In this document: positions 25,457 to 64,000 of the stretch, in pieces
How positions within the stretch are numbered: position 1 is the first letter of the stretch
Layout of the letters: every line of letters begins with the position of its first letter
Assembly: GCA_902794895.1 (NCBI GenBank)
Contig: CADBIY010000001.1
Span: forward strand, 124,001-188,000
DNA from: Candidatus Avelusimicrobium vaccinum
GTDB taxonomy: Bacteria; Elusimicrobiota; Elusimicrobia; Elusimicrobiales; Elusimicrobiaceae
DNA: 64,000 bases
Direction of reading: 5' to 3'
Made by a program: the position numbers and the translations under genes
The notes under the pieces: model-generated
The model's input: the letters and a program-made list of their open reading frames with translations, nothing else
Told to the model about the DNA's origin: nothing
Database searches by the model: none

Positions 25457-26461
25457 CTATTTATTCCCCCGGTTTACAAAGCCCATGGCTTGCAATAGAA
25501 CATGAGGTTGCTTCCCTTGGCAGATGATTTGCCAAACCGCATCTAAAATAGGCGTGTTTAAATGATTTTTGCGGGCAATATCGTAGACACTTTGTACCGA
25601 ATTGACCCCTTCGGCAATGGTTCCTACCTGTTTTTTAGCCTCTTCTAACGAAAGTCCCGCCCCTAGTTTTTCACCTAACCGGCGGTTGCGGGAAATGGCA
25701 GACATGCCTGTTAAAATAGCATCCCCGAAACCGGCTAAACTATATACGGTATCAGGAGCCCCTCCTTGACTGACAATAATTTGATTCATTTCTTGCAAGG
25801 CTTGGGTGATTAAGGCCGCTTTTGCGTTTGCTCCGTCTCCAATTCCGTCAATGACACCGCACCCAATGGCGAGTACATTTTTAATACCGCCGCCATATTC
25901 TACTCCTCGGCGGTCTTGGGATGGAACTACGAGGATTGGATCTCCGCTCATTACTTCGGCGATTTGTTGCACCAGTTGCAAATCCTTCCCGGCCAACATA
26001 ATTTTAGTCGGCACCCCTTGGGCTACTTCCAAGGCGAAACTCGGCCCGGAAAAAGCAAGTACTTTATCCTGCAATTCCGGCAGTTCTTCTTCTACTAATT
26101 CACAAATTGTTTTAAAAGTTTTGTCTTCAATTCCTTTTGAAGCACTGACAACCGGTACTACTTTCCCATGAAGCAGTGGTTTTAACTGTTCGCGGCAAAA
26201 AGTACGGATTGCTTTAGAAGAAATGACAAAGATAATTAAATCGGTATTATCAACCGCTTCGGCTACATTTCCGGTTAAGCGGATATTATCGTGGATTTTA
26301 AAGTTTGGGATATTGGGGTGGCGACCCATGGTTTTAAGAACATTGAGCAGTTGTTCATTATATTCCCACAAGGATACAGCATATCCTTTTTGGGCTAAAT
26401 GTTGCGCAATAACACTGCCCCAAATACCGGCACCGAACACGGTAATTTTATTGATTTGCAT
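25457..26461 (-). CDS. gpsA: NAD(P)-dependent glycerol-3-phosphate dehydrogenase
   Basis: 334 residues. The Rossmann motif is GAGIWGSVIA at the N-terminus, with the SKGIE motif and catalytic lysine context YGGGIKNVLAIG. It makes sn-glycerol-3-phosphate for phospholipids from DHAP. The ATG at 26461 lies inside the 3' end of plsY (14-base overlap), and the ribosome site is a weak AAAGAGAAAAG. plsY, the next enzyme in phosphatidic acid synthesis, is directly upstream, so the two form a functional operon. Confidence 0.94.
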   Translation of the reverse strand: MQINKITVFGAGIWGSVIAQHLAQKGYAVSLWEYNEQLLNVLKTMGRHPNIPNFKIHDNIRLTGNVAEAVDNTDLIIFVISSKAIRTFCREQLKPLLHGKVVPVVSASKGIEDKTFKTICELVEEELPELQDKVLAFSGPSFALEVAQGVPTKIMLAGKDLQLVQQIAEVMSGDPILVVPSQDRRGVEYGGGIKNVLAIGCGVIDGIGDGANAKAALITQALQEMNQIIVSQGGAPDTVYSLAGFGDAILTGMSAISRNRRLGEKLGAGLSLEEAKKQVGTIAEGVNSVQSVYDIARKNHLNTPILDAVWQIICQGKQPHVLLQAMGFVNRGNK

Positions 26462-27077
26462 TTTCTTTTCTCTTTTTTGAGCCGTCTTCAAATTTCAGTT
26501 CTTTCTGTTGTAAAAGCCGTTTAATATTAGGCACATGTTTGTAAATAACTAACGCCCCAATAGCCGTAACCATTAAATTGACTGACATGGGGTGGTGGCC
26601 AATAAAGAAACTACAAATAGGCAGTACAATACATGCACAGATAGAGCCAATTGAAATACGGCCCCACAAGGCCACACAAATCACAAAAGATGCAAAAGCC
26701 AAGGCGGTTGGGATGGGCAGTAATGCTGCAAATACGCCGGCAGAGGTGGCGACCCCTTTACCCCCGCGAAATTTCAGGTAAATTGTCCACATATGTCCTA
26801 AAATTGCAATCACCCCGCATCCGATGGCTACCCAATATGCATCCGGACAATAATGTCTGGCTAAACAAACCGGGATAAATCCCTTAAGTGCGTCAATTAA
26901 AAAAGTAGAAATGCCAGCCCATTTCCCGACAATCCGGTACACGTTAGCCGCGCCGGGGTTTCCGGAACCATGCTGGCGGATATCAATCCCCATTATTTTT
27001 TTTGAAATTAAATAGCCCGTGGGAATGGAGCCGAGTAAATAACTAAATACAATTAACGAGATAATTTTGATAGTCAT
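26448..27077 (-). CDS. plsY: Acyl-phosphate:glycerol-3-phosphate acyltransferase
   Basis: 209 residues and about five membrane helices, with the PlsY motifs LLGSIPTGYL near the start, SGNPGAANV and GGKGVATSAGV. It transfers the acyl group from acyl-phosphate to glycerol-3-phosphate in the inner membrane. Two starts are possible: ATG 27086 or ATG 27077. I prefer 27077 because two overlapping TATAAT hexamers end at 27090 and 27085, which would put the transcript start at or after the first ATG. It overlaps gpsA. The C-terminal tail is basic. Confidence 0.9.
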   Translation of the reverse strand: MTIKIISLIVFSYLLGSIPTGYLISKKIMGIDIRQHGSGNPGAANVYRIVGKWAGISTFLIDALKGFIPVCLARHYCPDAYWVAIGCGVIAILGHMWTIYLKFRGGKGVATSAGVFAALLPIPTALAFASFVICVALWGRISIGSICACIVLPICSFFIGHHPMSVNLMVTAIGALVIYKHVPNIKRLLQQKELKFEDGSKKRKENANQ

Positions 27078-27084
27078 ATATTTC

Positions 27085-27095
27085 ATTATATTATA
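27085..27095 (-). promoter_or_regulatory. Overlapping -10 elements at the plsY start
   Basis: TATAAT occurs twice, at 27095-27090 and 27090-27085 (minus strand). The inner copy ends seven bases before the second in-frame ATG, close to the leaderless spacing seen at four other genes here. No convincing -35. Confidence 0.45.
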
Positions 27096-28173: not shown

Positions 28174-29112
28174 TTATCTATTAGCACACGCCAAAATGGC
28201 CTGTGCTAATTTTTTGGGTTCAAAGTCTGCGTGTGCGTTTAAAGCAATGCGTTGCGCTTGTGTATAACGGTTAAACCAAGTGCGTTGCCGTTTAGCATAT
28301 TGACGGGTAAGCGTAGTAATTTTTTCCAACGCGTTTTCTGAAGAAAGTGTTCCCCGGATACATTCAATGGCTTGAGGATAACCTAAACTTTTTAAGGCAG
28401 GGGTTTGGCTTGAAAATCCTTCTAAAAGTAGTTGCCGGGCTTCTGCGCACATTCCCGGAAAAATTTGTTTGGTTCTTGTATTAATCCGTTCGGCCAAAAC
28501 GTCCCGAGCCCAGTCCAAATAAACCCAATGAGATTCTGCTGGATTTGGTAATTTAAAAAACTGCCCGCTTTTCAGTTCGCTGGCCGGTTTTCCGGTCAAC
28601 AGATACAACTCCAAGGCGCGCATGGTGCGTTGTACATTCCCAACGGGAATTTGAGTGGCGGAAAGAGGATCTTTTTGACGGAGTAACTGATGTAATCCTT
28701 CTTTGCCATATTGTTGTAGTAATTGCTCCAGTTGCTTGCGGGATTGAGGAGTGCTGGCCGGTAAATCATCCATTCCGACAAAATACGCATGTAGATACAT
28801 CCCGGTCCCTCCGGCAAAAATGAGCGGAATTTGCGGGTCTTGTTGTGTGAGACTGTGCACGCGCGTACAAAAATCTCCGGCATTAAAGATGTCGGTAACT
28901 TCCAAAAAATCTACTAAATGATAGGCAATTCCATCTACAAGATACTGTCCGTTTTGCCATACACCTTGCGGTTTAGCCGTTCCGATAGTCAGCCGCTTAT
29001 ATACTTGGCGGGAATCTGCGGAAATAATCATTCCGCCCGTTTGGCGGGCAAGTTCTAACGCGAGTTCTGTTTTCCCGGACGCGGTGGGTCCGCAAAGGAC
29101 AATCGGTTTCAT
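28174..29112 (-). CDS. miaA: tRNA dimethylallyltransferase
   Basis: 312 residues. The P-loop GPTASGKTELA is at the N-terminus, with the SADSRQVYK motif that binds the isoprenoid donor and a DLPAST/QRTMRALE segment typical of MiaA. It adds the dimethylallyl group to A37 of tRNAs reading UNN codons. MiaB, encoded upstream on the same strand, then methylthiolates that base. No ribosome site precedes the ATG at 29112; instead a TACAAT ends exactly six bases before it. The ATG at 29112 gives the canonical MKPIVLCGPTASGK start. Confidence 0.93.
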   Translation of the reverse strand: MKPIVLCGPTASGKTELALELARQTGGMIISADSRQVYKRLTIGTAKPQGVWQNGQYLVDGIAYHLVDFLEVTDIFNAGDFCTRVHSLTQQDPQIPLIFAGGTGMYLHAYFVGMDDLPASTPQSRKQLEQLLQQYGKEGLHQLLRQKDPLSATQIPVGNVQRTMRALELYLLTGKPASELKSGQFFKLPNPAESHWVYLDWARDVLAERINTRTKQIFPGMCAEARQLLLEGFSSQTPALKSLGYPQAIECIRGTLSSENALEKITTLTRQYAKRQRTWFNRYTQAQRIALNAHADFEPKKLAQAILACANR

Positions 29113-29118
29113 ACTTAT

Positions 29119-29147
29119 ATTGTAACTTATATCGGACGCTGTATAAG
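29119..29147 (-). promoter_or_regulatory. Leaderless-type promoter of miaA
   Basis: Minus strand: -10 TACAAT (29124-29119), a six-base gap, then ATG, so transcription would start at the A of the start codon. A weak -35 CTTATA (29147-29142) lies 17 bases upstream. A terminator separates miaA from the PilZ gene upstream, so an own promoter is needed here. Confidence 0.55.
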
Positions 29148-29161
29148 GGCTCTGATAAAAT

Positions 29162-29195
29162 AAAAATCCCCAACACATATAATTGCATTGGGGAT
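29162..29195 (-). terminator. Terminator after the PilZ gene
   Basis: Minus strand: ATCCCCAA and TTGGGGAT form an eight-base-pair stem around a 14-base loop, followed by TTTTATTTT. Confidence 0.75.
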
Positions 29196-41974: not shown

Positions 41975-42904
41975 TTAGAATGGGTGCCGGTATGATTTGA
42001 TTTCCTGTTCTAATTTTTCGTCTGTTCGTACTCGGTAGAAGAATAGGCACGACAGAGAAGTAATTAGAATATAAGGAATCATTAAAAATAAGATAAAAGG
42101 AATGGCGTTTGCATCGCGCGCCGAACTTTTTATCATATCGTAAAGCATGGGCGCAGTAATCAGTAACAACCCGCCCACTGTAAGTAGTAATACCCATGCT
42201 AAAAAACGAATCTCCCGACGTTGTTTGGAGGAATATCTCAGCATTTTTCCGCAAAGTTGGTAGTTTTTAATTTGGTTTTGTACATATTGAACCAAATCGC
42301 GTTCGTTCTCATTTCCGATTCCATATAAAGATACTACCCTGGATGAAAACTGCTGAAAACGCGGGGCAAAATCCAACACTTGCTTTATAAAGTTTAAGGA
42401 TCCTACTTGAGCAATAGTTTGTTCTGTTTCCGGAGTATGAAAAGAAAGTGTAATTTTGTCAATACAACGGCGTACGGCTCCTTTCCTTTCCCGGCGGATA
42501 TAAGTGGTTACTTCCATAGAGCAAGTGGTTTGGGTGTACGGAAAATAACAAGTCTTTTCGGGCAGTGTATGTTCTAAAATCAATTGGTCTTCCGTAAAAT
42601 TAAACGAAGAAAAAAATTCACTTTTAGGATGTTTACGAATCGAAAGAAAAATTTCTAGGATACTGACAAAAGGAAGAACAACAAGCAGTACTGTTAAAAT
42701 AGTAACCATTAAAAAAATTTCAAGTCCTTCTTGTTTTAGTGCGTTAAATTCCTCCGCCAGCGTGCGAAACATGATTGTCCATTGTCCATTGCTTCCTATA
42801 TAAAGTGCGGTTAACACCCCTATAAGAATGACAGAGGATACAATTCCTATAATTTGTGTTGTGTTCCTGTTATGTTGAATTGGAGATTTAATTCTAATAC
42901 GCAT
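41975..42904 (-). CDS. Membrane protein of unknown function
   Basis: 309 residues with four predicted membrane helices: two near the N-terminus (about 20-40 and 62-87) and two near the C-terminus (about 228-250 and 268-290), with a soluble domain of about 130 residues between them. I do not recognise the family. The ATG at 42904 lacks a spaced ribosome site (GGG only 3 bases before it), but TACGAT ends six bases upstream, as at other leaderless candidates. It is divergent from the C_GCAxxG_C_C gene, with starts 57 bases apart. Confidence 0.7.
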   Translation of the reverse strand: MRIRIKSPIQHNRNTTQIIGIVSSVILIGVLTALYIGSNGQWTIMFRTLAEEFNALKQEGLEIFLMVTILTVLLVVLPFVSILEIFLSIRKHPKSEFFSSFNFTEDQLILEHTLPEKTCYFPYTQTTCSMEVTTYIRRERKGAVRRCIDKITLSFHTPETEQTIAQVGSLNFIKQVLDFAPRFQQFSSRVVSLYGIGNENERDLVQYVQNQIKNYQLCGKMLRYSSKQRREIRFLAWVLLLTVGGLLLITAPMLYDMIKSSARDANAIPFILFLMIPYILITSLSCLFFYRVRTDEKLEQEIKSYRHPF

Positions 42905-42910
42905 ATCCCT

Positions 42911-42955
42911 ATCGTACTAAATATGAAGGAAAAAATTTATGATTTTTGCTAAGAT
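42911..42955. promoter_or_regulatory. Two divergent leaderless-type promoters
   Basis: Minus strand: TACGAT (42916-42911), six bases, ATG. Plus strand: extended -10 TGCTAAGAT (42947-42955), six bases, ATG. In each case the expected transcript start is the A of the start codon. No -35 is visible for either. Confidence 0.55.
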
Positions 42956-42961
42956 AATTTT

Positions 42962-43417
42962 ATGACAAACAAAGGGGAAGAAGCAAAACAACGTTTTTTA
43001 TCCGGCCAAAATTGTGCACAAGCCGTTTTAGGGGCTTTTGCGAAGGATTTTAATTTTGACGAGAAAACAGCCCTGACATTATCCGCTTGTTTTGGTGGAG
43101 GTTTAGGCCGGCAACGCGAAGTATGCGGTGCGGTAAGCGGGATGTGCATGGCCTTGGCCCTAAAATATGCTCCGCAAGATCCTACGGATCACGCGGCCAA
43201 AGCAGCCTTTTATGCGCGGATCCAAGAAGTATGTAACCGCTTTAAGGAAGAAAACGGTTCTATTATTTGCCGGGAATTACTCGCCTTGCCGCCCGGCTCC
43301 AGCGTTCCTACACCGGAAAAACGGACTACCGCCTATTATGGCACGCGTCCGTGTCCTGATAAAGTAAAGAGTGCGGCGGCTATTTTAGAAGCATATTTAA
43401 AAGAACAAGAAAAATAG
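42962..43417 (+). CDS. C_GCAxxG_C_C family protein
   Basis: 151 residues. It carries the spaced cysteine pattern of the C_GCAxxG_C_C family: NCAQAV, then ACFGGGLGR, then VCGAVSGMCM. This is thought to be a redox or metal-binding protein, often in anaerobes. Two further cysteines lie near residue 100 and 130. No signal peptide. The preA gene follows after 73 bases. No ribosome site; leaderless-type promoter. Function in the cell is not established. Confidence 0.88.
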   Translation: MTNKGEEAKQRFLSGQNCAQAVLGAFAKDFNFDEKTALTLSACFGGGLGRQREVCGAVSGMCMALALKYAPQDPTDHAAKAAFYARIQEVCNRFKEENGSIICRELLALPPGSSVPTPEKRTTAYYGTRPCPDKVKSAAAILEAYLKEQEK

Positions 43418-47528: not shown

Positions 47529-47870
47529 TCATTGTTTGAGCAAATCTTCCAGCGTTTCTTTTATTTCCGTCAATAATTTGATATCTATTCGGGATGGAGT
47601 TGCATTTTCTTGAGAAGGTAACCGATAGTTATGCAATTGCTTTTTTGCGCCTTCCAAAGTAAGTTTATGTTTATAAATGAGGTCTTTAATTTTCAAAATA
47701 GTGTATACATCTTGTTTGGTATAGCGGCGGTGTCCGCTTTCCAACCGAATAGGGCGGATGAGGTTAAATTCGGCTTCCCAATACCGAATAGAATATTCCG
47801 GTACGCCCGTCAAACGCTTTACGTCGCCGATAGAAAAATATTCACGATTTTCTAATTCCTCTAGTCCCAT
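47529..47870 (-). CDS. MerR-family regulator
   Basis: 113 residues. Winged helix at the N-terminus with the MerR motif YFSIGDVKRLTGVPEYSIRY and the HRRYTKQDV segment, then a coiled-coil dimerisation helix. No cysteine-rich sensor domain, so it belongs to the short HU/IHF-neighbour type. The ATG at 47870 has no ribosome site; TGCTATAAT ends exactly six bases before it. Upstream in-frame sequence is interrupted by a terminator hairpin, so a longer protein is unlikely. Confidence 0.9.
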   Translation of the reverse strand: MGLEELENREYFSIGDVKRLTGVPEYSIRYWEAEFNLIRPIRLESGHRRYTKQDVYTILKIKDLIYKHKLTLEGAKKQLHNYRLPSQENATPSRIDIKLLTEIKETLEDLLKQ

Positions 47871-47876
47871 AAATTT

Positions 47877-47885
47877 ATTATAGCA
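47877..47885 (-). promoter_or_regulatory. Leaderless-type promoter of the merR-like gene
   Basis: Minus strand: extended -10 TGCTATAAT, then AAATTT, then ATG. The predicted transcript start is the A of the start codon. The terminator at 47897-47924 sits where a -35 would be. Confidence 0.6.
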
Positions 47886-57757: not shown

Positions 57758-60700
57758 TTATTTTTGAACTTTAATTTGCAAAGTTTCCGTATGTGCTCCA
57801 TATTGAGGGGCATACATGGATTGTGTTTGGGCCGCGGCCGCATGGAAATCACCGGCTACCGTGGGACGTAATACATAGCGAAGTGTTAACGTGCCGTTAG
57901 GTAACCAGTTGATAAAGAAATTGGTACTGGCATCTCGAATTTCCCGGTAGAAACTAACGGGATTCCATTCCCAGGAACTAACCAATTCGCTGCTTTCAAA
58001 TCCGGCCGGTTTGGGATCGGTTACTTGCACATATTCAAATGCACTGCGTGTATGTAAAGTAAGATGTACTTCAATTTCATCTCCGATTTGCACATGTTCT
58101 AAATCGGCGAGCGGGATTAATTTGGTTTTGTTTGCCTCTTTTACGCGGCGGAAATACTGCCGGGTAAGATGGATGACTCCCTGGGGGGAAGCCGTTACTT
58201 TGTTGGATTGGTAAATAGCACTTAGTGAAGCAAAATCCGTCATTTTCCCTTGTTTGCGGATCGTGGCTTCTATATCTGTTGAAGTAATTTGCCGGCCGGA
58301 GTGTACCCATTGTAGGTTTTCTGTCCAATCCATGGGTTGGAACGATAAATTCTGCCGGGTATTACCCCAATTGATTTGATAACCGGATGGGGTCGATAAA
58401 GCCCCTTTGATTTTCATGATATCAAGGAGTGTAAATACGGCTTGGGCCGCCGCTTGCGTATCCGTCCAATCGTTTACCTGGCGGTTGAAAAGAAGCCATT
58501 GGGTCATAGCATCAAGTTGCGGTGCTTGCGGACGGATTTCCAGTAGCGTGCGTAACGTAACCGTTTGGGTAGTTAGCGTGTCGTTGTACCAAAGCCAACT
58601 TTCCGGTTCTGGAGCAAAATAAGCGCCGGTTAAAGGGTCTTCTTTTAAGCGGGAGAGCACTAAATTTAAGTATTTATTGGCTTTTACATCATCTCCCAAC
58701 CGGTGGTAAATAGCGGCTGCATAAATTTGACCGAGAGGTGTCATAAATTTTGCATACTCATCGGCATAATCTACCCACCGCTTGATATACGGTTTAGCGG
58801 CATTATAGGACGGCCAGGTTTTCGGAAATGCCGATAAGGTATATGCCGCATACAACGCATAGGCAACGGATTCTTTGGAATCTTTTTTTAACCGAGCCTC
58901 AATTTTAGGATGAATAAATTCAAAAGCCTTTTGGGCCGCAGCCTGCGGAATTTCCGCTTGATAGGTAAGCGCTTGGCTGAAGGCATGAAGGGCATAGAGT
59001 GTTAAATATTCGTCATCCGGTCCTCCCGCAAACCAGGTAAAAGCCCCTGTTGGATTTTGGAACTTTAAGATGTTTTTAAGTTCTTTTTCTAAATAAGAAG
59101 CAACTAATTTATTGTCAAATAAACTAATCATGTCGGCGTTATGAACCTGGCGTCCCTGCGCTTGGCGCAACCAAGGGGTTTGGGTGAGAAGTTCCAACCG
59201 TAAGGGATCATTTTCGTTCCAGGAAGCCGTAAGACCGGTTCGTTTCGGTAATTTTTGAACTGCTTGTTTAAGTTCCGGATACGTTGTATAGAACTGATGC
59301 ACAACGGCTAGCGGTACATAACGGTTCAAGGTAGAAACGAGGTCCTTATGGGTGGTAGTTAATAAGTTTGGCATGGAATTTAATACCTGCAAGGCTAAAC
59401 TGGGATGTAAGGACAAAGAAGTCAATTCAATATCTTGGGAAGGTATATTAGCGATTTCGCGGAGGTTTAATAAATTTGTCCCTTCCTTTAGGGCCGTATG
59501 TACCGACGCTAATAAACGTTGCTTAGCGGGAAGAACCGGCAATTCGCGTTGCTCTGCATCATTTTCTTTGCCGGCCCGGACAATGGCTAAAACCGTGTAT
59601 AGATCCGGTTGATTCGGGGCTTGGATTTCCCAAGTTACAAATTGCGTGCTTTGTGCCTCCACAGAAACCGTTTTAACCGGCTGTAAAATATGCCAATCTG
59701 GTAACACGTTTTGACCGTTACGTGTAAGTTGCAAAGTAACTTGTGCAGTTAGTTTTTGGTTGGTTTGGTTTGTAACAGCCGCTTGCAGGGTGCCGCGGTC
59801 TCCTTCCCGGTAAAAACGCGGTAAGGTAAGGCGGATCATTAAGTCTTTACGGGTTACGGTTTGTGCCATGAAAGAACCGAAATCAGCCGCAGGGGTCAAT
59901 ACATATCCCAAAATGTTCCACGCGGTTAAACTTTGCGGTAAGGTGAAGCGTAGAGAAGCCTTGCCGTTTGTTACCGGTACGGCTGAATTAAAATAGGCTG
60001 TTTCCGCAAAATCAGTTCTTACCGTTGTTTGGTCGGTTGACCCGGTATCGGCTTCGCTTTCTTGGACACTTTCTAAAGTATCTGCGGAAAATGAGGCTCC
60101 GGCTGCCATGGCGGCAGGTTCTTCCATGGCATTCGTGGTTATCATTTTATTATCTTGCACTCCTGCCGCCTTAGCCATCATAGGCATGGCAGCCCGGCTG
60201 CCTAACATTCTGTGTAGGCCGTATCCGCGTACAAACATGTGTAAATTAAAGGAAGGCAACGGTAGTTGGTTAAATGCGTGTTTCCTGTTTAAAGCAGGTA
60301 TACGTACGGAGTGTGTGAATCCGGCCCGGTTACTTTTGGTGTAAGAAGGAACATCCTTTTGCTGGGAAAAGAGTTGAGAAAAATCAAGAGAGAGGTTATT
60401 TTTTTCGTAATAATCCAGCGATTTATCATAAATAGTTACCAGGGCTTGCCCGTTTACCGGAGTGTCGGAAGCACTCCGTGCCGTCAATGTCCAATGAACG
60501 GAGGATCCGGGTTTAACTGATTCGGGAAGATGCATATCTACGGCGAGTTTTTTGTTGTCAAAGGGAACGTCTACCGAAGTTTCTCCGTCATAAAACTGGT
60601 AGTTACTGGCTCCAAACCAGCGTACCGCAAGTCCACCCCGGTGGGTATCCTGAATTGGAAATTCCAATACAGTTACACCGCTGTCTAATTTTTGTTTATG

Positions 60701-63700
60701 AATGACAAAATTATTTTGTTGGTAAATTTCCACTTGCTTGGTGCCTTGTAGTTCGGCTGCGCCCAGTAACACGCGCATCGTTTCTCCCGGATAATAAGTA
60801 TCCCGCTGAGTCAGTGTAATAGCCGGGAGTTTTAAGGCCGATTTCGCTTGAGTTACTACAAAAACCAACGATTGTGTAGCCGCTTTTGGGCTGGAAACGC
60901 TCAGACGATAAACCCCTTCCTCTAAAGCCGGCAAAGAAATACGTTGCGGGCCGGGCTCGTTAAAGTAGAGGGTCTTTTCAAAAGCCGTTTTTGTGGTCGC
61001 AAAATCTTGATAATATGCTTCCAAGGAAGGCTGGCGGCTACAGGAAAAATGGCGGCAACTGCTTTGCACGGCGGGGGGAAGTTTATTTTCCAACAAGTGT
61101 ACCTTGACTTGTACTTTTCCGGTTACGGAGTTGCCGTCTGCATTTGTTAAGTCCAGTTGTGCAAGTTCGGTAGCGGTGCGGGCATCATAAAAACCTTGTG
61201 AAAAATCGATCTTAAATAAATGAGGATGTGCGCTGAGTTGATACGAACGGGTGGTTTCTATGGGCCGCCCGCTTTCATCAAAAACTTCTGCCTGTACAAC
61301 AAATTGGGAAAATTCCTCATCTTCCTGTACTTTGGAAGGAGTAAAAGAAACGAAAAATTGACCTTTATCGTTGGTGGTCGTTTCCCCTTGCAAAACAAGT
61401 TCTTCCTGAACAGGCATCCAACGGGTCCACCACCAGTAAAAAGGCGGATGATACTCTTGACGTTTAATGGAGTAATTTACTTTTGCGTTGGCTAACGGAG
61501 CCCCAAAATAGTAATTGGCTTGTCCTTCCAAGCGGGCCGGTTTGCCATATTCCAATGTTTGCACCGGGGAAAGCAAGGTAACTTCATAATCCGGACGTTT
61601 AAATTCTTCCACGCGAAAGGAGCGTCCGGTTTGATAGGTCCGTTTGCCGTCAGGTAATTCAGTCTCCAGATAATAATGTCCCAATACCCCTTCTTGCGGT
61701 AAGGAAAATTGGGCTTGCGCCGAACCCATTTCATTTAAGGGTTGGGTGCTTGTAAAAATAGTTTTCCAATTCGGATCCCTGACCGTAAATTTAATCTTTT
61801 TACCGCTGAGTGTTTTCCAACCGCGTACTTGGCGTTCCAATGCTTGAACGGACAGATATACTTTTTGTCCGGGCCGGTAAATGGGGCGGTCCGTTTGGGC
61901 CGATAACAGTACCGGATCCGGGTTGTAGAAAGAAAAATGGATCGGTTGGATATAAGCAACGGAATGATCCTTTTTACCTAAGGCGCTGATTTGATAGTTT
62001 GAAGAACGGTTTTGGTTTCCTACCGTTACAGCGCGCGGTAAAGCCACTTGCCCATTTTTATCAGTTTGGGTTTGTTCGCGGGCTCCTTGCCAACTGGTTA
62101 ATAAATCCAACGGTACTTGGGCGGCCGGTTGACCCGTTTTCAAATCGACCGTATATAAATGGAACACATTGGGATGTAGTGTCTTTTGCGGGGCTGAGCG
62201 TAGTGTAGTAAAATCAGCGGGATTGGCTTCAATCGCGGAGGTTGCAAATACCGTAAGATCTGTTACGTTTAACACAACGGCTTGTACTGGGGTTGTTTTT
62301 TGGTTAAAATCGGCTTCCGGGCAGGATAATACGACATAAATCCCGACAGGTAAAGCCGTTAAAGAAAGCGTCCCGGTTTGTTCTTTAGCAACGGATTGAT
62401 ACGCAATGGGAAACGTTTGCTCGTGTAAGGGCTTTTCGTTTAAAAATTGTAAGTAATCTTCTTCCCGTAGAGAAGAAAAAACAGATCCCCAGTTATTGGG
62501 TTTATTTTTGGGGTTGTGGCGTGCGTAAATTTTACTTAATTGTTCAAAAGAAGAAGCATAGATCTTTACATAGATATGGTGCAAATTCTTCCCGGAATAT
62601 TGCAAAACGGGCGATTGGGGATGGATGGCTCCCTGAGGAACCTCCAGATGAAGTTGGACTTGTTGCAATTGGGCTGCCAAATTGGCGCATTCCTGGGTAA
62701 AATAGGAAGGCTCTAATTGTTGGGCATCTTGGCAGATCTGTAAGGCATCTGCTTGCCGTTGTTGATTTTGTAAAAAATGCGCAGTTTCCAGTGCTGTATA
62801 TCCGCGTGCATAAGAGGTATTATCCGAACTCCAATATCTTTTTAAGCGGTTTAACCAAGCCGGGCTTGTTTTTGCGGAAAATCCGCCTAATTCTTGGAGT
62901 AAGTTGGTAGCCAAGGTAACTGATTTTTCTTTATTTTCCCATATAAAATCAGCCGAGTTTGTAAATGGGAACAAAATAAAATCTGTCTTCCAAAAAACGA
63001 TGGCATTTTGACGGTTTTTACCGGATAGAGAAAATGCTTGTTCAAGTAACTGTGCCTGCAGGGTAAGCGCCGCTTCCCGGCCTCCCTTTTTAAGACGGAC
63101 TGTTTTGTTTAAAAAAATGGGTTTATCAATCCCGGTAAGAGGAGCGGTTACCGTATCATTGTTTTGATGATTTAACGAGTGGATCCATTGTTGTACGGTA
63201 AAATCAAATAAGGTAGGGATGCGGCGGATATCGGTATCTTTCAAAGTAAGAATTAAATTTTCCTGTTCAATGGGGGCTTGAAGCAAGGTGTTTTTTAAGG
63301 ACCATAATTGGCGGAAATCTTGGTCGATTTGTTCTTGCCACTGTTGTTGTGTCCAGGTAGTTATATCTTGGGAGGCTTGCGGGGTATCAATCGGGTTTTC
63401 GTTTAGGATGCGGGAAAACTGACTGGCCGCATTTTGAAAAACAAAAGTACGGTAAAGCAAAAAACGGGCTTTCCATAAAGGATCTTGCGGCAATTCATAG
63501 CCGTACAGCGTTTTGGCCGCATTTAAAAATTCTCCTAAATGATACTGACAGGCTGCTACGCGTAGTTGTGCCTGGTATTTTTGGGAACCGGAGGCAGTAG
63601 TTAAAATTTCTTCGTATTGCTTTTTGGCCGTTGTAAAATCATTATTTTGAAAATTTGTTTCTGCTTGGGTTAAGTTTGGTACGGCTCCCGCATATAAAGG

Positions 63701-63739
63701 AATCAGCAAAGCCAAATATACTTGGATTATTTTTCTCAT
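57758..63739 (-). CDS. Alpha-2-macroglobulin-like protein without thioester
   Basis: 1993 residues. The signal peptide (1-19, ending YAGA) has no lipobox, so it should be periplasmic rather than lipidated. It has an N-terminal TPR-like helical part (about 20-400), then a row of macroglobulin beta domains starting with TDRPIYRPGQKVYL, a low-complexity Ala/Met/Ser-rich stretch near residues 1160-1226 that may be the bait region, the A2M domain marker FTLPQSLTAWNILGY, and an alpha-helical toroid (about 1450-1800). The CxEQ thioester that normally opens the toroid is absent: the matching place (near residue 1455) reads MPNLLTTTHKDL. It may trap or shield proteases without covalent capture, as known for the thioester-less bacterial class. 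No pbpC neighbour. GAGG precedes the ATG. Confidence 0.9.
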   Translation of the reverse strand: MRKIIQVYLALLIPLYAGAVPNLTQAETNFQNNDFTTAKKQYEEILTTASGSQKYQAQLRVAACQYHLGEFLNAAKTLYGYELPQDPLWKARFLLYRTFVFQNAASQFSRILNENPIDTPQASQDITTWTQQQWQEQIDQDFRQLWSLKNTLLQAPIEQENLILTLKDTDIRRIPTLFDFTVQQWIHSLNHQNNDTVTAPLTGIDKPIFLNKTVRLKKGGREAALTLQAQLLEQAFSLSGKNRQNAIVFWKTDFILFPFTNSADFIWENKEKSVTLATNLLQELGGFSAKTSPAWLNRLKRYWSSDNTSYARGYTALETAHFLQNQQRQADALQICQDAQQLEPSYFTQECANLAAQLQQVQLHLEVPQGAIHPQSPVLQYSGKNLHHIYVKIYASSFEQLSKIYARHNPKNKPNNWGSVFSSLREEDYLQFLNEKPLHEQTFPIAYQSVAKEQTGTLSLTALPVGIYVVLSCPEADFNQKTTPVQAVVLNVTDLTVFATSAIEANPADFTTLRSAPQKTLHPNVFHLYTVDLKTGQPAAQVPLDLLTSWQGAREQTQTDKNGQVALPRAVTVGNQNRSSNYQISALGKKDHSVAYIQPIHFSFYNPDPVLLSAQTDRPIYRPGQKVYLSVQALERQVRGWKTLSGKKIKFTVRDPNWKTIFTSTQPLNEMGSAQAQFSLPQEGVLGHYYLETELPDGKRTYQTGRSFRVEEFKRPDYEVTLLSPVQTLEYGKPARLEGQANYYFGAPLANAKVNYSIKRQEYHPPFYWWWTRWMPVQEELVLQGETTTNDKGQFFVSFTPSKVQEDEEFSQFVVQAEVFDESGRPIETTRSYQLSAHPHLFKIDFSQGFYDARTATELAQLDLTNADGNSVTGKVQVKVHLLENKLPPAVQSSCRHFSCSRQPSLEAYYQDFATTKTAFEKTLYFNEPGPQRISLPALEEGVYRLSVSSPKAATQSLVFVVTQAKSALKLPAITLTQRDTYYPGETMRVLLGAAELQGTKQVEIYQQNNFVIHKQKLDSGVTVLEFPIQDTHRGGLAVRWFGASNYQFYDGETSVDVPFDNKKLAVDMHLPESVKPGSSVHWTLTARSASDTPVNGQALVTIYDKSLDYYEKNNLSLDFSQLFSQQKDVPSYTKSNRAGFTHSVRIPALNRKHAFNQLPLPSFNLHMFVRGYGLHRMLGSRAAMPMMAKAAGVQDNKMITTNAMEEPAAMAAGASFSADTLESVQESEADTGSTDQTTVRTDFAETAYFNSAVPVTNGKASLRFTLPQSLTAWNILGYVLTPAADFGSFMAQTVTRKDLMIRLTLPRFYREGDRGTLQAAVTNQTNQKLTAQVTLQLTRNGQNVLPDWHILQPVKTVSVEAQSTQFVTWEIQAPNQPDLYTVLAIVRAGKENDAEQRELPVLPAKQRLLASVHTALKEGTNLLNLREIANIPSQDIELTSLSLHPSLALQVLNSMPNLLTTTHKDLVSTLNRYVPLAVVHQFYTTYPELKQAVQKLPKRTGLTASWNENDPLRLELLTQTPWLRQAQGRQVHNADMISLFDNKLVASYLEKELKNILKFQNPTGAFTWFAGGPDDEYLTLYALHAFSQALTYQAEIPQAAAQKAFEFIHPKIEARLKKDSKESVAYALYAAYTLSAFPKTWPSYNAAKPYIKRWVDYADEYAKFMTPLGQIYAAAIYHRLGDDVKANKYLNLVLSRLKEDPLTGAYFAPEPESWLWYNDTLTTQTVTLRTLLEIRPQAPQLDAMTQWLLFNRQVNDWTDTQAAAQAVFTLLDIMKIKGALSTPSGYQINWGNTRQNLSFQPMDWTENLQWVHSGRQITSTDIEATIRKQGKMTDFASLSAIYQSNKVTASPQGVIHLTRQYFRRVKEANKTKLIPLADLEHVQIGDEIEVHLTLHTRSAFEYVQVTDPKPAGFESSELVSSWEWNPVSFYREIRDASTNFFINWLPNGTLTLRYVLRPTVAGDFHAAAAQTQSMYAPQYGAHTETLQIKVQK

Positions 63740-63766
63740 AACAGAACCTCGCAATTGATAAATACC

Positions 63767-63803
63767 AAAAATCTCTTTTGCCGGTAAGGGAAAAAGAGAT
63801 TTT
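63767..63803 (-). terminator. Terminator after argS
   Basis: AAAATCTCTTTT / AAAAGAGATTTT stem (63768-63779 with 63792-63803) with a 12-base loop, followed by a short T-rich stretch on the minus strand. AT-rich and therefore moderate. Confidence 0.6.
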
Positions 63804-63827
63804 AAGCGTGTACAAAGTGGCCCGGGA

Positions 63828-64000
63828 CTACATTTCTTCCGGTGCACTTACGCCAATAAATTCCAATCCTTTTTTGATTCGTTCCGCCACCCGTTGGCAA
63901 ATAAATAAACGGGATTTAGTCTGTTCCAGGTTGTTTTCATCCAGTACGCGGCACGTATCATAAAATGCGTGGAATAGACCGGCCAGTTCAATCAAATAAG
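63828..64000 (-). CDS. argS: Arginyl-tRNA synthetase, C-terminal end (partial)
   Basis: The last 57 codons are in the window; the 5' part lies beyond the right edge. The peptide contains ELAGLFHAFYDTCRVL and ends LEFIGVSAPEEM, the classical C-terminus of class I ArgRS (the anticodon-binding DALR domain). It charges tRNA-Arg. The stop TAG is at 63828-63830 and a hairpin follows. The A2M-like gene comes next on the same strand. Confidence 0.93.
   Translation of the reverse strand, partial: YLIELAGLFHAFYDTCRVLDENNLEQTKSRLFICQRVAERIKKGLEFIGVSAPEEM

What the first reader, a model, noticed from the sequence alone, without database searches (positions are those of the whole stretch)
42902..42964. 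Divergent gene pair with two mirror-image leaderless promoters
Both start codons lack a usable ribosome site, and each has a -10-like hexamer ending exactly six bases before ATG: TACGAT on the minus strand and TGCTAAGAT on the plus strand. With the usual seven-base distance from the -10 to the start point, both transcripts would begin at the A of ATG. Together with miaA and the merR-like gene (reported separately) this makes four exact cases in one window, with plsY a near fit, while most genes here have AGGAG sites. TANNNT-based leaderless promoters are known from Deinococcus and Actinobacteria; I know of no description for this lineage.
Basis: partly seen in the sequence, partly recalled or inferred. 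Interest (0 to 1): 0.7.

Follow-up and report, generated by a model that had tools for sequence, protein, structure and literature searches.

The report
Leaderless gene starts in Elusimicrobium
In this gut bacterium (Elusimicrobium) a sizeable minority of genes have their transcription-start signal pressed directly against the start codon, so their messages would begin at the first codon with no ribosome-binding leader; this way of starting genes is known elsewhere but I found no description of it for this branch of bacteria.

Summary
TACGAT-N6-ATG (minus) and TGCTAAGAT-N6-ATG (plus) are at the stated places. The lineage is Elusimicrobium (Elusimicrobiota). In 830 kb of the same genome, with starts called without upstream information, -10-like hexamers sit at exactly 6 (42) or 7 (18) bases before the start of 338 first-in-transcript genes, against 7.9 per position expected (3.8-fold, p = 4e-18). 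The signal is absent from in-operon genes, and motif genes are depleted of Shine-Dalgarno sites (13/60 vs 188/278). Of 25 plus-gene orthologues with their own upstream region, 21 keep the -10 at exactly 6 bases, without a conserved -35; 0 of 8 in-operon orthologues have it. The minus-gene family keeps it at 5-8 bases in 12 of 15 members. A 150-genome census finds the TATAAT-N6/7-ATG excess in Elusimicrobium and its own class, and none overall in the rest of the phylum. The mirror-image pairing is not special: double-leaderless divergent pairs are no commoner than independence predicts. This is a known kind of promoter in a lineage for which I found no description; transcript ends remain unmapped.

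The parts
42911..42916 (-). -10 element TACGAT of the minus gene, 6 bases before its ATG
   Evidence: sequence; relatives have TATAAT/TACAAT with TGT/TGC before it, at spacing 5
42905..42910 (-). 6-base gap AGGGAT between -10 and ATG; T at -1
41975..42904 (-). minus gene, 309 aa, predicted leaderless; no Pfam or NCBIfam family
   Evidence: homologues in 14 of 61 genomes
42947..42955 (+). extended -10 element TGCTAAGAT of the plus gene, 6 bases before ATG
   Evidence: sequence; conserved at exactly this distance in 21 of 25 orthologues with their own upstream region
42956..42961 (+). 6-base gap AATTTT; first base A and last base pyrimidine conserved in orthologues
42962..43417 (+). plus gene, C_GCAxxG_C_C putative redox protein (PF09719), 151 aa, predicted leaderless
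29119..29124 (-). miaA leaderless -10 (TACAAT, N6, ATG at 29112)
47877..47882 (-). merR-like gene leaderless -10 (TATAAT, N6, ATG at 47870)
27085..27090 (-). plsY leaderless -10 (TATAAT, N7, ATG of Met4 at 27077)

Best explanation
Both genes are transcribed by the housekeeping RNA polymerase from their own sigma-70-type, mostly extended -10 (TGn-TATAAT) promoters with no conserved -35. Each -10 ends 6 bases before the ATG, so with the normal -10-to-start distance of 7-8 bases transcription begins at the A of ATG and the mRNA is leaderless; ribosomes then start directly at the 5'-terminal AUG. This promoter class is used by roughly 13% of first-in-transcript genes (about 6% of all genes) here and is shared across the Elusimicrobium genus and its class. 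Shown: motif, exact spacing, genome-wide enrichment, SD depletion, evolutionary conservation. Inferred: actual 5' ends, sigma factor, leaderless translation.
For: Position-specific peak at spacing 6-7 in first genes: 42+18 of 338 against 7.9 per position, p = 3.7e-18, no significant peak in inner genes. Motif genes start with ATG in 60/60 and have SD>=4 in 13/60 against 188/278. Features not used in the selection appear: TGn before the hexamer in 15/42 (N6) and 10/18 (N7) against 3-5% elsewhere, and T at -1 in 90% at N6 against 63% in other first genes, which fits a pyrimidine(-1)/A(+1) start point. Plus-gene orthologues: 21/25 at exactly N6, 0/25 at 5 or 7, 0/8 when in an operon (p = 4e-5); flanks -45 to -19 mostly below 0.5 bits against 1.7-2 bits at five of six -10 positions. 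Minus-gene homologues: 12/15 at 5-8 bases, often TTTTGCTACACT, mostly at other loci. Census: pooled ratio N6-7 to N10-11 2.68 in genus (30/30 genomes above 1), 1.82 family, 1.66 order, 1.95 class, 0.97 in 79 genomes of the rest of the phylum. Start-anchored peak also in an order-level relative, 30 against 8 expected.
Against: No transcript data. TACGAT is a poor -10 and lacks TGn in this genome. The minus gene's three closest relatives have spacing 5, which is not enriched genome-wide (4 against 7.9). A second -10-like TATGAT lies 18 bases before the plus ATG, which would give a leader of about 11 bases, but it is not conserved in the relatives.
Confidence: 0.88

Rival explanations
1. The hexamers are chance A+T-rich matches; the genes are transcribed from further upstream and translated without a recognisable Shine-Dalgarno site (S1/A-rich or unstructured start).
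For: The spacer is A+T-rich; each loose motif appears in 5.8% of shuffles; the raw TANNNT-N6-ATG count in the genome is only 804 against 746 for the reversed pattern.
Against: Sharp peak at 6-7 bases in first genes only, conservation of hexamer plus distance against randomised flanks, TGn enrichment. An A-rich translation enhancer would not give a fixed TATAAT register.
Confidence: 0.04
2. The -10 elements are real but the transcripts carry very short leaders (1-4 bases), or the annotated ATG is not the start and translation begins downstream.
For: Spacing 7 occurs in 18 genes and 8 in one homologue, so start points may be offset by a base or two.
Against: The dominant spacing 6 with T at -1 and A at +1 fits initiation at the A of ATG; all 60 motif starts are ATG; homologues of miaA align from residue 1.
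Confidence: 0.06
3. The pair is a regulated bidirectional promoter in which the mirror arrangement itself matters (polymerase competition). This could be true in addition to the best explanation.
For: Both promoters are kept in four species (window, L047, L022, L023); in L047 the two -10s are only 20 bp apart; the same plus gene in L070, L071, L073 and L074 is paired with a different gene (MKAIIVTIGD..., cinA-like) that again has TACAAT-N6-ATG.
Against: Start points would be 58 bp apart, outside the 10-23 bp of bidirectional promoters (PMC12825309); double pairs are not enriched in this genome, 2-3 against about 5 expected; no notable inverted repeat within the spacer.
Confidence: 0.12

Closest known systems
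-10-motif (TANNNT) leaderless promoters of Deinococcus-Thermus (Zhong 2025, PMC12340547; Zheng 2011, PMC3160421)
   Same: -10 element placed a few bases before the start codon, no Shine-Dalgarno site, coexists with SD genes, -35 not required.
   Different: About 6% of genes here against about 30-40% there; consensus is the fuller TGn-TATAAT rather than TANNNT; genome is 44% GC; no experiment yet.
TG-extended TA-like signals of low-GC leaderless genes, e.g. Lactococcus (Zheng 2011, PMC3160421)
   Same: TG peak before TATAAT, apparently replacing the -35 region.
   Different: Unrelated phylum; here supported by an orthologue footprint at single-base spacing.
Bidirectional promoters (Warman 2026, PMC12825309)
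   Same: Two opposed -10 elements in a short spacer; polymerase footprints must overlap.
   Different: Start points 58 bp apart rather than 10-23; separate -10s, no shared symmetric element.

Membership tests
Leaderless bacterial promoter (TA-like signal) | -10-like hexamer at a distance that puts the start point at the start codon | tested here: met
   N6 on both strands; genome-wide peak at 6-7
Leaderless bacterial promoter (TA-like signal) | Enriched above chance at starts of first-in-transcript genes | tested here: met
   60 against about 16 expected, p = 3.7e-18; no significant excess in inner genes
Leaderless bacterial promoter (TA-like signal) | No Shine-Dalgarno site at these genes | tested here: met
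   SD>=4 in 13/60 against 188/278; none usable at the pair
Leaderless bacterial promoter (TA-like signal) | Hexamer and spacing conserved in orthologues | tested here: met
   21/25 at N6; minus family 12/15 at 5-8
Leaderless bacterial promoter (TA-like signal) | Mapped 5' end at the start codon | not testable with these tools
   no transcript data
Leaderless bacterial promoter (TA-like signal) | Loss of expression when the -10 is mutated | not testable with these tools
   experiment needed
Extended -10 (TGn) sigma-70 promoter | TG one base before the -10 hexamer: plus gene | tested here: met
   TGC in the window; T at -15 in 17/21 and G at -14 in 16/21 orthologues
Extended -10 (TGn) sigma-70 promoter | TG one base before the -10 hexamer: minus gene | tested here: not met
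   TAG in the window; TGT/TGC in relatives L021-L023
Bidirectional promoter | Divergent start points 10-23 bp apart with overlapping or shared -10 elements | tested here: not met
   58 bp apart, 33 bp between -10s; definition from PMC12825309

The most novel reading that the evidence does not exclude
A leaderless, -35-less extended -10 promoter is an ancestral trait of one class of Elusimicrobiota (Elusimicrobium and its class), weak or absent in the other classes of the phylum, so that leaderless initiation was gained or lost once within a phylum; and the compact back-to-back versions force mutually exclusive expression of the two genes.
Probability: 0.3. Interest if true: 0.55.

Novelty: new member of a known kind. 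Interest (0 to 1): 0.45.

Why it matters
It adds a deep and mostly uncultured bacterial lineage to those with a coherent leaderless promoter class, and gives a rule (TGnTATAAT, 6-7 bases, ATG) that improves gene-start calls, as shown by miaA and plsY. The contrast between one class and the rest of the same phylum makes gain or loss of leaderless initiation testable. Drugs reported to inhibit leadered but not leaderless initiation (noted in PMC9581028) would be expected to act differently on such genes.

Tried and rejected
Raw pattern count (TANNNT-N6-ATG) is too noisy: 804 against 746. Mirror-pair enrichment was tested and not found in this genome. No operator-like repeat within the spacer. 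CarD as a helper for promoters without a -35: the only PF02559 match in the genome lies in a 1054-aa frame, probably Mfd, so no CarD was found. Three literature queries failed on syntax. Supplementary tables of the surveys were not open to me. Class-level start-anchored tests in G083 and G087 had too few genes to be decisive (4 against about 1, p = 0.017; 1 gene).

Full report
What is there. The 57-bp spacer between the minus gene (ATG at 42904) and the plus gene (ATG at 42962) carries TACGAT-AGGGAT-ATG on the minus strand and TGCTAAGAT-AATTTT-ATG on the plus strand. The plus gene is a C_GCAxxG_C_C putative redox protein (PF09719, 118 bits); the minus gene matches no Pfam or NCBIfam family. 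The closest named relatives of the plus protein (74-88% identity) are all uncultured Elusimicrobium genomes. The window is part of a 1.45-Mb draft genome.

Is it more than chance? A shuffle of the spacer gives both loose motifs in 0.3% of cases, and the raw count of TANNNT-N6-ATG in the genome is barely above its control (804 against 746), so neither alone is convincing. I therefore called genes in 830 kb of the same genome with a coding-score method that ignores everything upstream of the start and profiled -10-like hexamers (TANNAT or TATANT) by distance. First-in-transcript genes show 42 at distance 6 and 18 at distance 7, against 7.9 per position; distances 5 and 8 are at or below background, and inner-operon genes show no significant excess (earlier versions). 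The motif genes all start with ATG and mostly lack Shine-Dalgarno sites (13/60 against 188/278). Properties that played no part in the selection also stand out: TG one base before the hexamer, a G/C-poor stretch upstream, A just after the hexamer and T just before ATG. Subtracting background gives about 44 genes in the sample, about 13% of first genes and 6% of all genes.

Footprint. Upstream regions of 33 plus-gene orthologues were compared. Of 25 not sitting close behind another gene, 21 have the -10 at exactly 6 bases and none at 5 or 7; of 8 inside operons, none has it (Fisher p = 4e-5). Across the 21 distinct sequences, the region from -45 to -19 is close to random while -12, -11, -8 and -7 are invariant; TTTGC typically precedes the hexamer and -1 is always T or C. 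There is no conserved -35. Note that selecting sequences with the motif makes the hexamer columns partly circular; the independent evidence is the 21/25 count at one exact distance, the TTTG, the A at -6 and the pyrimidine at -1. Two exceptions (L061, L066) appear to have a promoter further up and an SD-like site, so leadered and leaderless forms seem to interchange. The minus gene's homologues, at 20-43% identity and mostly at other loci, keep a -10 (TANNNT) at 5-8 bases in 12 of 15 cases; its nearest relatives have spacing 5, a small departure from the genome rule.

How it most likely works. With the usual 7-8 bases from the end of the -10 to the start point, RNA starts at the A of ATG (pyrimidine at -1, A at +1), and the ribosome must recognise the 5'-terminal AUG. 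The start point and the translation step are inferred, not shown.

The pair. The two promoters would have start points 58 bp apart (33 bp between -10s here; 20 bp in L047, from the spacer length and spacings), so by standard polymerase footprints both are unlikely to be occupied at once, but double-leaderless pairs are not over-represented in this genome (2-3 observed, about 5 expected). The same plus gene in L070, L071, L073 and L074 is paired with a different, cinA-like gene that again has TACAAT-N6-ATG. I read the mirror image as two common promoters meeting in a short spacer.

Distribution. TATAAT-N6/7-ATG against TATAAT-N10/11-ATG in 150 genomes (computed): ratio 2.68 in the genus, 1.82 in the rest of the family, 1.66 order, 1.95 class, 0.97 for 79 genomes outside the class. 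Start-anchored checks: order relative G109 30 against 8 expected (p = 1e-9); two genomes outside the class 9 against 4 (p = 0.02) and 5 against 3 (p = 0.15), so weak use there is not excluded.

Known or new. Leaderless TA-like promoters are well described (PMC3160421; PMC12340547), and GeneMarkS-2 predicted them in 21.6% of bacterial species (quoted in PMC9581028). No held paper that I found connects them with Elusimicrobia (PMC10783764 only lists the class under anti-SD types). This is a new member of a known kind, with a lineage-limited distribution as its most interesting aspect.

Noticed in passing
window 28174-29178 (-): The longest ORF of miaA begins 22 codons too early; the true start is 29112, supported by homologues aligning from residue 1 and by TACAAT-N6-ATG.
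   Followed up: yes
window 26448-27086 (-): plsY probably starts at Met4 (27077), where an overlapping second TATAAT gives spacing 7.
   Followed up: partly
L070, L071, L073, L074 upstream of the plus-gene orthologue: A cinA-like gene (MKAIIVTIGD...) is divergent from the same redox gene, again with TACAAT-N6-ATG: a mirror pair with a different partner.
   Followed up: partly
minus-gene family, L076-L090: Fast-evolving protein family without Pfam match, found only in the same genus in this search, two copies in G016; many members share TTTTGCTACACT before the start.
   Followed up: partly
G000:C1:39453-39623: The only CarD/TRCF-domain match in the genome lies in a 1054-aa frame (probably Mfd); no stand-alone CarD.
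   Followed up: partly
window 57758-63847 (-): A 2029-aa open reading frame, not identified.
   Followed up: no
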